From: a virus
Strand: one strand, 5' to 3'
Virus record (IMG/VR): IMGVR_UViG_3300042691_001848
Location: 1-20,293 of that record
Length of the DNA stretch: 20,293 nt
The notes below the pieces were generated by a model. The model made no database searches and was not told the origin of the DNA. It saw nothing but the letters and a program-made list of their open reading frames with translations. This document shows positions 8,662-17,162 of the stretch, one piece after another; the first letter of the stretch is position 1, and each line of letters starts with the position of its first letter. The position numbers were made by a program, and so were the translations under genes.

Positions 8662-9837
8662 ATGGCTAATGCATATACAACCACTGGCTCCAACTCGCTT
8701 GGAGGTACCATTGGCGGTGCTGGTCTCGTACAGAAGGCGTATGACCGTCTTGTAGAGTTCGCACTCCGTGCACAACCACTAATCCGTTCAGTTGCCGATA
8801 AGACACCTGCACGTCAGAGCATCCCTGGTTCATCAGTTGTTTTGCAGCGTTATGTTGACTTAACAAAGAAGACAGCAACACTCACAGAAACAGTTGACCC
8901 AGATGCAGTAGCGTTGGCAACACCAACCTACACAACAATTACTCTTGCAGAGTATGGTAACGCAGTACTTGTAACACGTGCTTTGGAACTCTTCAGCCTT
9001 GCTGATGTAGACCCAGCAATTGCTAACATCATTGCGTTCAACATGGCAGACTCAATTGACGAAGTTGCTCAGACAGTGCTACGCGCTGGCGACAATGTAC
9101 TTCGTGGCGGAACTGCTACATCAACAGCAACTCTTGCTTCATCTGATGTATTTACATCAGCGCTAGCACGTAAGGCAACTGCAAAGTTGCGTGCTAACAA
9201 GGCTATCCCACGCAAGGGTTCACTCTACTGGGCTGGTATCCACCCAGAAGTTTCACATGACCTTCGCGCTGAAACAGGCGTAGGTTCATGGCGTCAGCCA
9301 CATGAGTATCAGTCAAATGATGCTATCTGGGCAGGCGAAATTGGTACATACGAAGGTGCTTTCTATGTAGAGTCACCACGTTTGTACAACGACAAGGTAG
9401 GTGCTAACCGCACTACTTCAGGTACAACAACAACTGCATCAGCAGCGTCAGGAGCAACAACACTTGCTCTTACATCTACTTCAGGCATCAATGTTGGCGA
9501 TGCAATCATGGCAACAGGATTGACAACATCAACAACATATGTAACTGCAATTGATGGACTAAACGTAACAGTATCTCCAGCAGTTCTATCTGCTGGTGTT
9601 ACATCAGGTGCAGCAGTAACAATCACTCCAATTACAAAGGTATTCAACACATACTTTGCTGGACAGCAAGCACTTGCTGAGGCAGTTGCTGAAGAGCCAC
9701 ACGTTGTAATCGGACCAGTTGTTGACAAGTTGATGCGTCACCGTCCACTCGGATGGTACGGCGTACTTGGTCACGCTATCTACCGTCAAGAAGCGCTTTA
9801 CCGCGTTGAGACATCTTCATCAATTGACTTTGTGTAA
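8662..9837 (+). CDS. Major capsid protein, N4-gp56 family, HK97 fold (391 aa)
   Basis: This protein forms the icosahedral shell. Family-typical features run in order: an N-terminal arm and the helix LVQKAYDRLVEFALRAQPLI; a strand region with GSSVVLQRYVDLTKKTATL; ITLAEYGNAVLVTRALELFS, which corresponds to the family's conserved YG motif; a central helix with DSIDEVAQTVLRAGDNVLRG; and a C-terminal part with GPVVDKLMRHRPLGWYGVLG, then YRQEALYRVETSSSIDF. Residues about 250-324 form an extra Thr/Ser/Ala/Val-rich beta segment (SGATTLALTSTSGINVGDAI onward), absent from shorter family members as far as I recall. It lies between EGAFYVESPRL and the helix FNTYFAGQQALAEA, so it probably projects from the capsid surface. 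The ATG follows an excellent ribosome site. The gene is preceded by the scaffold gene and followed by a hairpin that may end or reduce transcription. Confidence 0.92.
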   Translation: MANAYTTTGSNSLGGTIGGAGLVQKAYDRLVEFALRAQPLIRSVADKTPARQSIPGSSVVLQRYVDLTKKTATLTETVDPDAVALATPTYTTITLAEYGNAVLVTRALELFSLADVDPAIANIIAFNMADSIDEVAQTVLRAGDNVLRGGTATSTATLASSDVFTSALARKATAKLRANKAIPRKGSLYWAGIHPEVSHDLRAETGVGSWRQPHEYQSNDAIWAGEIGTYEGAFYVESPRLYNDKVGANRTTSGTTTTASAASGATTLALTSTSGINVGDAIMATGLTTSTTYVTAIDGLNVTVSPAVLSAGVTSGAAVTITPITKVFNTYFAGQQALAEAVAEEPHVVIGPVVDKLMRHRPLGWYGVLGHAIYRQEALYRVETSSSIDFV

Positions 9838-14450: not shown

Positions 14451-17162
14451 ATGACAGTACGTAAGTATACCTCCCGTTCACAGCAAACAACACTGTCATC
14501 AGCAGTTACCTCTGGTGCTACTGTTATTCCAGTAACAAACGCTTCTACGTTACTTGCTGGTACAACTATCTCTGCTGGTCAAACCTTTGTAGTTGTTATT
14601 GACCCAGATACAGCCCTTGAAGAAATTGTAGAAATTACGGCTGCTTCGTCTAACAACCTGACAGTAACTCGCGCTGTTGACATGTCTGGTGCATCAGCAC
14701 AAGACCACTCATCAGGTGCTGTAGTGCGTCACATGGTTATTGGTCGTGACCTTCGTGAGTCTAACCTACACATTGAGGCAACTGGTGCTTATAATGATGG
14801 TACTGGTACTCATGCTATGCACGGTTTAGGTGCATCTGATGGTGTAGTAGTTGGAACTGCTGCAACACAGACACTCACAAATAAGACATTTACGACACCT
14901 ACAGTCAATGGTGCTACTTTGTCTGGTACAATTACTAGTACAGCAACAGTTACAGGTGGCACCATTACGGGTGCCACTATAACAGGTCTGTCTAGTGCAG
15001 GTATGGTTAGTTCATCTGCTACTCCTAAAGACTATGTAGATGCTATTCTTGGTTCAGCAACAGCAGCAGCAACCAGTGCTGCTAGCGCAGCAACAAGCGC
15101 TACGGCTGCAGCCACATCTGCTTCATCCGCAGCAACATCGGCAACAGCCGCTGCTACATCTGCTGCATCTGCTCTTACATCACAAACCGCAGCAGCAACT
15201 TCTGCAACTAGTGCAGCAACTTCTGCTACCGCAGCGGCTACTTCAGCAACATCTGCTGCTGCATCTGCAACTGCTGCAGCAACCAGCGCTACCAGCGCTG
15301 CTGCTTCTGCTACCGCTGCTGCAACTAGTGCTACTTCTGCTGCAGCCAGTGCTACAACTGCTGCAAACTCTGTGGCTACTATAGCCTCATACGCAACTAC
15401 TGCTTCTAACTCTGCTGCTGCTGCTGCAACTTCGGCTACAAGTGCCGCTGCAAGCGCTACAGCAGCCTCTACAAGCGCGACTAGCGCTGCTGCTAGTGCA
15501 ACTGCTGCCGCTACCTCTGCAACCTCAGCAGCGGCTTCTGCGACTGCAGCAGCCACAAGTGCTGCTTCAGCCCTGACTAGTCAGACCGCTGCTGCTACAT
15601 CAGCATCTAGTGCTGCAACCTCAGCCACTGCTGCTGCTACAAGTGCAGCAGATGCCCTGACATCAGCCAACAGCGCAGCAACAACTTACGACAACTTTGA
15701 TGACCGTTACTTAGGTGCTAAGTCATCTGCTCCTACAACAGATAATGACGGCAACCCACTACTTACTGGTGCGTTGTACTTTAACTCTGTTTTGGCTGCT
15801 ATGTATGTATGGACTGGTACTGCTTGGTCTGTTATGGCAACAAGCGGTGACATTGAATCAGTAACTGCAGGCACAGGATTAACAGGTGGTGGTGCAAGCG
15901 GTGCAGTTACTGTAGCCCTTGACACATCAAGTGTGTATGTAGTTCCTGCGCAGTCTGGTCAAACTGGCAAATATTTAACTACTGATGGTACCTCTGCTTC
16001 TTGGGGAACTGTTGCTGGATACCTAGCACCTACAATTGGTACAACTACAATTACATCTGGTACCACGGTATCTACATTGACATCTGTTGCTTTAAGCAAC
16101 GCATCATTAACAGGTACAGTTACTGCTGGTGGTTCTGCTGGAACTAGCGGATACGTATTATCTACTACTGGTACTGGCGTACAATGGGCTGCTGTTGCAG
16201 GTTCTCTTGCACAACCAACTGAACCAACATCTCCTAGTGATGGACAAATCTGGGTAGACACAGATGGCACAGCACTTATCAATCAGTTGCTACGCTGGTC
16301 TAAGGCACCCGCTAATGGAACAACAACTCTATCTGGCAATGATGATAACTCAGTACCGCTGACCTACAGCGTAGGTTATGAGCAGGTATTCCAAAACGGT
16401 GCATTACTTGCACGAGGTTCTGACTACACAGCAACAAGTGGTACAAGTATTACATTGACTAACGCCTCTGTAACTGGAGACATTTTTGAAGTCTTTGCTG
16501 CACAACCTGTAGCAATCTCTGATGTGTACACACAGACTCAGGCTAACTCAGCGTTTATCAGCAAATCTCTGACTACTACTACTGGTGACATTATCTACGC
16601 GTCAGGTGCTAACACACCTGCTCGTCTAGGTATTGGTTCTACTGGTCAAACTTTATCCGTATCTGGTGGAGTTCCTGCTTGGGTTTCTCCTGGATTAACA
16701 AAAATTATGTCAGCAACTTTTAGTGGTGTAGCCAATACAGGTACTACTTTTGACGGAGTATTTAGTAGCAGTTACAATAATTATGTGATTGTTTTTTCTA
16801 ATTTATTTGCATCAGGCAATGTTAATCTTTTGTTTCAGTTAAGGAAAGCAGGACCAACAACACAGGCAAGTGCTTATTATGGAACAAGATTATCAGGAAA
16901 TACATTAGCAACAACAACAAATGGAACTTCTTTTGACTTGTTTCCGTGCAGCACAGAGTCATCGGCTGGTCAAATATTATTGGCTACAGATGCAACACCA
17001 ACTCAATTAAGTTACACAATGTTTGGCAGACAGTTAAACCAAGCAATAATTGGCGGCTTTATGAACGACTCAGTCGGTGCTAATGCAGCAACAGGATTTA
17101 TTTTATCCCCATCAAGCGGAACAATAAGCGGCTTTGTGGCTGTTTATGGATTGGCAGACTAA
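14451..17162 (+). CDS. Tail fibre protein 1 with long Ala/Ser/Thr repeat (903 aa)
   Basis: Probable trimeric tail fibre. Order of parts: residues about 10-95, a beta module (SGATVIPVTNASTLLAGTTI, later DHSSGAVV), probably the virion-attachment end; residues about 120-180, the common phage motif GTAATQTLTNKTF followed by TVNGATLSGTITSTATVTGG; residues 202-412, the Ala/Ser/Thr repeat; residues about 413-463, the fibre domain with DDRYLGAKSSAPTTDNDGNP and MYVWTGTAW; residues about 614-690, a domain with GYEQVFQNGALLARGSDYTA, also widespread in phage fibres; residues about 711-744, the linker GDIIYASGANTPARLGIGS; residues about 747-903, the C-terminal receptor-binding candidate. The ATG follows AGGCG closely. 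The gene overlaps the small protein after it by TAATG. The terminal domain is paralogous to that of fibre 2. Confidence 0.85.
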   Translation: MTVRKYTSRSQQTTLSSAVTSGATVIPVTNASTLLAGTTISAGQTFVVVIDPDTALEEIVEITAASSNNLTVTRAVDMSGASAQDHSSGAVVRHMVIGRDLRESNLHIEATGAYNDGTGTHAMHGLGASDGVVVGTAATQTLTNKTFTTPTVNGATLSGTITSTATVTGGTITGATITGLSSAGMVSSSATPKDYVDAILGSATAAATSAASAATSATAAATSASSAATSATAAATSAASALTSQTAAATSATSAATSATAAATSATSAAASATAAATSATSAAASATAAATSATSAAASATTAANSVATIASYATTASNSAAAAATSATSAAASATAASTSATSAAASATAAATSATSAAASATAAATSAASALTSQTAAATSASSAATSATAAATSAADALTSANSAATTYDNFDDRYLGAKSSAPTTDNDGNPLLTGALYFNSVLAAMYVWTGTAWSVMATSGDIESVTAGTGLTGGGASGAVTVALDTSSVYVVPAQSGQTGKYLTTDGTSASWGTVAGYLAPTIGTTTITSGTTVSTLTSVALSNASLTGTVTAGGSAGTSGYVLSTTGTGVQWAAVAGSLAQPTEPTSPSDGQIWVDTDGTALINQLLRWSKAPANGTTTLSGNDDNSVPLTYSVGYEQVFQNGALLARGSDYTATSGTSITLTNASVTGDIFEVFAAQPVAISDVYTQTQANSAFISKSLTTTTGDIIYASGANTPARLGIGSTGQTLSVSGGVPAWVSPGLTKIMSATFSGVANTGTTFDGVFSSSYNNYVIVFSNLFASGNVNLLFQLRKAGPTTQASAYYGTRLSGNTLATTTNGTSFDLFPCSTESSAGQILLATDATPTQLSYTMFGRQLNQAIIGGFMNDSVGANAATGFILSPSSGTISGFVAVYGLAD
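15054..15686 (+). repeat. Degenerate seven-residue Ala/Ser/Thr coding repeat in fibre 1
   Basis: In frame, 211 residues (202-412 of fibre 1) follow a seven-residue pattern of the type A-A-[T/A]-S-A-[T/A]-[A/S], broken once near the middle by a less regular part (VATIASYATTASNSAA). The unit is kept in protein but not in DNA: Ala, Ser and Thr codons vary freely between copies. It probably forms an extended shaft in the trimer. Confidence 0.9.

What the first reader, a model, noticed from the sequence alone, without database searches (positions are those of the whole stretch)
15147..15605. Fibre shaft repeat: identical protein segments written with almost entirely different codons
The 20-residue segment AAATSAASALTSQTAAATSA occurs twice in fibre 1, at 15147-15206 and 15546-15605. 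All 20 residues match, but only 4 of 20 codons do (one aca, one gct, one acc, one gca). The match continues for 14 more residues with one change. The copies are 399 nt apart, which is 133 residues or 19 units of seven, so they are in phase with the repeat. The protein pattern is held while the DNA is scrambled, even though identical DNA repeats would arise naturally from duplication. This suggests selection against recombination or slippage between repeats, or an old duplication with strong protein constraint.
Basis: seen in the sequence. Interest (0 to 1): 0.7.

Follow-up and report, generated by a model that had tools for sequence, protein, structure and literature searches.

The report
Phage fibre repeat avoids DNA repeats
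A virus of (probably) freshwater actinobacteria builds a long tail-fibre rod from about 30 near-identical seven-residue units, and across its family those units are spelled with fewer repeated DNA words than chance allows, which would keep the gene from recombining with itself; the one pair of copies that drew attention is not unusual on its own.

Summary
That pair proves nothing alone: synonymous shuffles give 6.2-6.5 shared codons (P = 0.17-0.21), and similar motif pairs in related phages share 2-10 of about 21 codons. Relatives keep both copies in place, so the duplication is old.

A naive shuffle shows no avoidance, but it is the wrong null. This phage contains no AGCT, GATC, GGCC or CCGG (AGCT: 0 against about 133 expected), and naive shuffles put about 16 AGCT into the shaft. 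With these sites forbidden, the window's shaft has fewer repeated words than expected (longest repeat 14 nt against 19; P = 0.02). In 68 related shafts without AGCT, repeated 12-, 15- and 18-mers run at about 0.7, 0.5 and 0.5 of expectation. The deficit reappears in loci fetched later, in 13 nearly unrelated shafts, and under Markov and heptad-exchange nulls. Words shared between different phages are not depleted; related fibres of AGCT-containing phages show an excess.

Most likely, exact direct repeats are purged because recombination between them would change the rod's length. That cause is inferred, not shown.

The parts
14451..17162 (+). Tail fibre gene (903 aa) that contains the shaft
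   Evidence: ORF; PHROG 38058 'tail fiber protein', E = 9.9e-128, best stretch 161-464; no Pfam match
15036..15692 (+). A/S/T-rich shaft, 219 aa, about 30 heptads that alternate in pairs (14-residue period)
   Evidence: AlphaFold2 on an 8-row alignment predicts two long helices, residues 192-304 and 308-419, at pLDDT mostly 60-73
15147..15206 (+). Copy 1 of AAATSAASALTSQTAAATSA
   Evidence: orthologous copy in L085 shares 17 of 20 codons
15546..15605 (+). Copy 2 of the same segment, 4 of 20 codons in common with copy 1
   Evidence: orthologous copy in L085 shares 13 of 20 codons
15348..15410 (+). Interruption of the repeat (SATTAANSVATIASYATTASN) that shifts the 14-residue phase by one heptad; the predicted helix breaks here
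   Evidence: unit layout; helix break at residues 304-308 (15360-15374)
15192..15226 (+). The longest exact DNA repeat in the shaft: GCAGCAACTTCTGC (14 nt) at 15192 and 15213, 21 nt apart
   Evidence: site-aware null mean 19.3 +- 3.2 nt, P = 0.02

Best explanation
The shaft is a long helical rod whose protein sequence must stay repetitive and whose length must stay in register with its heptads. Exact direct repeats in the DNA let the gene recombine or anneal with itself and lose or gain units. In this family of AGCT-free phages, variants carrying such repeats are therefore purged, and synonymous codons end up spread so that exact matches longer than about 12-14 nt between units are rare. Shown: the protein repeat, the lack of exact repeats in the window, their depletion across the family, and the confinement of the depletion to within single genomes. 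Also shown: the heptad-quantised rod lengths and the total absence of AGCT, GATC, GGCC and CCGG, which further limits codon choice (NNA-GCT is forbidden). Inferred: that recombination-driven length change is the cause. The cited pair is an ordinary example of two old units whose synonymous sites are saturated.
For: Window, site-aware null: longest repeat 14 against 19.3 nt, repeated 15-mers 0 against 11.6 (both P = 0.02). 68 shafts without AGCT: repeated 12-mer pairs 1233 against 1783, 15-mers 191 against 403, 18-mers 47 against 103. Same measure between different phages: 1.1-1.2 of expectation, and 1.18 (12-mers) to 1.9 (18-mers) for pairs without flank homology, so codon context is not the cause. 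Matched-peptide test without a shuffle: identical 5-residue stretches in one shaft share DNA 62 times against 176 at the between-phage rate, ratio 0.35 (0.24-0.49). Loci fetched later, n = 22: ratios 0.69, 0.41, 0.21 for 12-, 15-, 18-mers. Second-order Markov null 0.55/0.32/0.25; heptad-exchange null 0.50/0.23/0.12. 13 nearly unrelated shafts: 12 of 13 below expectation for 12-mers, 13 of 13 for 15-mers. Anchored shaft lengths fall in only two classes modulo 7 (22 and 9 of 31). Shifted matches of 30 nt or more between phages are mostly offset by whole heptads (119 of 169).
Against: A plain synonymous shuffle without the site constraint shows no deficit. Units exactly 21 nt apart are not depleted (ratio 1.27, CI 0.78-1.92) and the deficit does not weaken with distance up to 700 nt, unlike replication slippage. 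No clean deletion between two direct repeats was found among near-identical shafts; the one candidate pair, L266/L273, was not a simple deletion. Related fibres in AGCT-containing phages show an excess of repeats, so the effect is lineage-specific and the reason is unknown. The window alone is only P = 0.02.
Confidence: 0.6

Rival explanations
1. Nothing but age: units duplicated long ago, synonymous sites drifted to saturation, and protein selection kept the residues. No repeat avoidance.
For: Codon identity at residue-identical in-phase sites (0.311) is close to random codon choice (0.326). Paralogous copies are far older than the split from L003/L085. The plain shuffle over 82 shafts gives 15.85 observed against 15.77 nt expected for the longest repeat.
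Against: Saturation predicts a ratio of 1 against a correct null. Observed ratios are about 0.7 for 12-mers and 0.5 or less for 15- and 18-mers, confined to within-genome comparisons, and replicated.
Confidence: 0.22
2. By-product of restriction-site avoidance: forbidding AGCT, GATC, GGCC and CCGG (and perhaps further unknown motifs) shapes codon order and so changes word sharing.
For: The window has 0 AGCT, GATC, GGCC and CCGG. GCA-GCT codon pairs are 14-fold suppressed in shafts. The deficit is seen only in AGCT-free phages.
Against: Forbidding sites shrinks the set of allowed words and raises expected sharing (12-mer pairs in the window's shaft: 25.8 under the plain null, 43.7 under the site-aware null), so an unmodelled forbidden motif should produce an excess, not a deficit. 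Between-phage sharing under the same sites is not depleted.
Confidence: 0.08
3. Mosaic assembly: each shaft is patched from segments of different phages by recombination, so units in one shaft have different histories and look scrambled.
For: 169 exact matches of 30 nt or more between phages sit at shifted positions, mostly whole heptads; L152 carries 26 nt identical to part of the window's copy 1 at an offset of 133 residues.
Against: Random draws from the pool would share words at the between-phage rate. The heptad-exchange null, which does exactly that, expects 2702 repeated 12-mers and 925 15-mers; 1362 and 210 are seen. Mosaicism may supply variety, but a purge of repeats is still needed.
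Confidence: 0.1

Closest known systems
A/S/T-rich heptad shafts of phage tail fibres (PHROG 38058 and similar families)
   Same: Profile match E = 9.9e-128; alternating heptads, predicted long helices, conserved domain after the shaft
   Different: No difference in kind at protein level; what stands out is the DNA spelling
Codon scrambling / codon diversification in gene engineering (Tang and Chilkoti algorithm, as described and extended in PMC12365220)
   Same: Same protein repeat written with different codons so that identical DNA stretches are short, which prevents recombination between repeats
   Different: Here it is a statistical property of natural genes, partial rather than maximal, and its effect on stability has not been measured
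Tests for selection against direct repeats (for example PMC4417187, mammalian mitochondrial DNA)
   Same: Same question, tested against sequences randomised under codon usage
   Different: That study found no selection against direct repeats in mtDNA; here there is roughly a two-fold deficit of 15-mers in a gene whose protein forces repetition
Restriction-site avoidance by phages (PMC6286503)
   Same: Complete loss of 4-bp palindromes; complete or nearly complete elimination is reported for about a tenth of viral genomes
   Different: Four sites at once in the window and five in relative OX376640 (39 kb); the host and its enzymes are unknown here

Membership tests
Phage tail fibre (PHROG 38058) | Profile match over shaft and neighbouring domain | tested here: met
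   E = 9.9e-128, three stretches, best 161-464; much of it is low-complexity shaft, but the N-terminal and post-shaft domains have many relatives of their own
Direct-repeat avoidance (natural codon scrambling) | Protein strongly repetitive | tested here: met
   Identity 0.79 at lag 14 and 0.61 at lag 7
Direct-repeat avoidance (natural codon scrambling) | Fewer exact DNA repeats than synonymous, site-aware nulls | tested here: met
   Window P = 0.02; family ratios 0.69 and 0.47 for 12- and 15-mers, replicated
Direct-repeat avoidance (natural codon scrambling) | Confined to comparisons within one genome | tested here: met
   Between-phage ratio 1.1-1.9; matched-peptide ratio 0.35 at five codons
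Direct-repeat avoidance (natural codon scrambling) | Repeats actually destabilise the gene | not testable with these tools
   Needs an experiment; no clean deletion event was found in the sequences
Recent tandem duplication | Long identical DNA stretches between units | tested here: not met
   Longest exact repeat in the shaft is 14 nt
Restriction-site avoidance | Site absent where many are expected | tested here: met
   AGCT 0 against 133, GATC 0 against 47, GGCC 0 against 30, CCGG 0 against 14
Restriction-site avoidance | Host carries matching restriction enzymes | not testable with these tools
   Host not identified; nearest hint is an Actinomycetota MAG contig with a related capsid gene

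The most novel reading that the evidence does not exclude
A natural gene family in which synonymous codons are kept scrambled because exact direct repeats above roughly 12-14 nt are selected out, giving a natural measure of the homology length at which recombination harms a phage.
Probability: 0.5. Interest if true: 0.65.

Novelty: new variant of a known kind. Interest (0 to 1): 0.5.

Why it matters
Genes for repetitive proteins are expected to be unstable, and engineers scramble codons to stabilise them. This family suggests that phages do the same through selection, to a degree that can be measured word length by word length. The contrast between depleted (AGCT-free) and enriched (AGCT-containing) lineages makes the link to host recombination testable. 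The case also shows a trap: ignoring absolute site avoidance in the null hid the signal completely.

Tried and rejected
Plain synonymous permutation as the decisive test: rejected because it creates about 16 AGCT sites in a shaft that has none. Clustering by flank words with single linkage: it lumped 60 of 68 shafts into one cluster and gave uninformative intervals, so graded redundancy cuts were used instead. Search for deletion events between near-identical shafts: L266/L273 is not a simple deletion, and L048/L058 differ by one heptad with a compensating change. Searching with the shaft alone: low complexity, one relative returned. Assembly artefact: short-read assembly could hide long repeats but should not cause a lack of 12-18-mers (reasoning, not tested). 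Adjacent identical codons (lag 1): an excess under the plain null, explained by AGCT avoidance (0.519 observed, 0.506 under the site-aware null). Literature: no paper in the searched library reported natural codon scrambling in phage fibres; subscription journals are mostly missing from it.

Full report
WHAT WAS CLAIMED AND WHAT IS THERE. The window is a 20,293-base virus record carrying head and tail genes: a major capsid protein at 8662-9837 (PHROG 1357, E = 1e-75) and, at 14451-17162, a 903-residue tail fibre (PHROG 38058, E = 1e-127). Residues 196-414 of the fibre are a shaft made almost only of Ala, Ser and Thr in heptads that alternate in pairs. AlphaFold2, at moderate confidence (pLDDT mostly 60-73 in the shaft, pTM 0.32, monomer only), draws the shaft as two long helices with a break at residues 304-308, inside the non-repetitive interruption. 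That fits a fibrous coiled-coil rod, but the oligomeric state was not tested.

THE CITED PAIR. Shuffling synonymous codons within the shaft gives 6.2 +- 2.0 shared codons for this pair (P = 0.21); with the phage's forbidden sites respected it gives 6.5 (P = 0.17). The same ALTSQT-type motif occurs two or three times in ten other shafts, at whole-heptad spacings, and across all eleven 2-10 of the 16-22 identical residues share a codon. Relative L003/L085 has both copies at the same places. There the orthologous copies share 17/20 and 13/20 codons with the window, so the two copies were already different before these phages split. The pair is old and ordinary.

WHY THE OBVIOUS TEST MISLEADS. A plain synonymous shuffle over 82 non-redundant homologous shafts finds no avoidance: mean longest repeat 15.85 observed against 15.77 nt expected. 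But the codon-pair table shows GCA-GCT at 0.07 of expectation, and the reason is that AGCT is absent from the whole window (0 against about 133-141 expected), as are GATC, GGCC and CCGG. The plain shuffle puts about 16 AGCT into the window's shaft. A permutation that keeps codon counts and forbids these sites reproduces the adjacent-codon statistic (0.506 against 0.519 observed) and raises expected word sharing. Against it the window's shaft is low: longest repeat 14 against 19.3 nt, repeated 15-mers 0 against 11.6, both P = 0.02.

FAMILY-LEVEL RESULT. In 68 shafts lacking AGCT, repeated 9-mers are at 0.97 of expectation, 12-mers at 0.69, 15-mers at 0.47, 18-mers at 0.45. The loss is in register with the heptads (12-mers 772 against 1365); other in-frame matches are not reduced (461 against 419). 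Controls: (a) words shared between different phages at non-corresponding places run at 1.1-1.2 of the same null, and 1.18 (12-mers) to 1.9 (18-mers) for pairs without flank homology; (b) without any shuffle, identical 4-, 5-, 6- and 7-residue peptides within one shaft share DNA at 0.63, 0.35, 0.24 and 0.17 of the rate between unrelated phages, while shuffled shafts score 1.1 on this measure, although shared ancestry inflates the between-phage rate for the longer words; (c) loci fetched afterwards give 0.69, 0.41 and 0.21 for 12-, 15- and 18-mers (n = 22); (d) first- and second-order Markov nulls and a null that swaps real heptads between phages all give deficits; (e) thinning to 13 shafts sharing at most 3% of 16-mers leaves 12 of 13 below for 12-mers and 13 of 13 for 15-mers. 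Related fibres from AGCT-containing phages show the opposite, an excess growing with word length (1.6, 2.5, 4.5 in the later set), as expected from ordinary duplication.

MECHANISM. The deficit is as strong at 300-700 nt as at 42 nt and absent at 21 nt. Replication slippage should be worst at short distance, so pairing or annealing of homologous stretches during recombination fits better. Shaft lengths between fixed anchors fall into two classes modulo 7, and matches shifted between phages are mostly offset by whole heptads (119 of 169); both suggest that units can be exchanged but that length and register are constrained. The proposed chain, that repeats recombine, units are lost, the rod is wrong and the variant is lost, is inferred from these facts. 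I found no direct deletion event.

RELATION TO KNOWN WORK. Writing a repetitive protein with varied codons to stop recombination is an established engineering method (PMC12365220, which adapts the Tang and Chilkoti algorithm). A search for selection against direct repeats in mitochondrial DNA found none (PMC4417187). Elimination of restriction sites by phages is well known and can be complete (PMC6286503). I did not find a report of natural codon scrambling in phage fibres, but the library holds open-licence papers only.

HOST. The capsid protein's nearest named relatives are Streptomyces phages (about 55% identity) and two unannotated 39-kb phage records, one of which (OX376640) lacks AGCT, GATC, GGCC, CCGG and CATG altogether. 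A capsid relative lies on a contig binned as Actinomycetota that also lacks these five sites. An actinobacterial host is likely, not shown; a freshwater habitat is my inference.

LIMITS. The shafts are related, so P values from pooled tests overstate independence; the thinned set of 13 is the fairest. The window alone would not establish the effect.

Noticed in passing
window 1-20293: Complete absence of four 4-bp palindromes: AGCT (0 against about 133), GATC (0/47), GGCC (0/30), CCGG (0/14); TCGA and CATG are also low (3/13 and 49/97).
   Followed up: partly
L163 (OX376640.1, 39112 bases): A relative lacks five 4-bp palindromes over its whole record: AGCT 0/177, CATG 0/127, GATC 0/125, GGCC 0/62, CCGG 0/39. 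Among 136 shaft loci the number of missing sites varies from none to seven.
   Followed up: partly
L039, L026, L051, L046, L021, L025, L033: Phages with many AGCT outside the shaft have none inside it (for example L039: 50 outside, 0 inside against 17 expected), as if the shaft had been acquired from an AGCT-free lineage.
   Followed up: no
window 15054-15686 and 67 related shafts: Neighbouring heptads (21 nt apart) share codons slightly more than expected over the set of 68 shafts (0.36 against 0.32), unlike larger distances.
   Followed up: partly
window 15032-15556, minus strand: A 174-codon open frame opposite the shaft, rich in Ala, Val and Glu; probably only a by-product of the shaft's codon composition.
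   Followed up: no
window 1-20293: CGACG/CGTCG is absent on both strands (6.8 expected), possibly a further avoided site.
   Followed up: no
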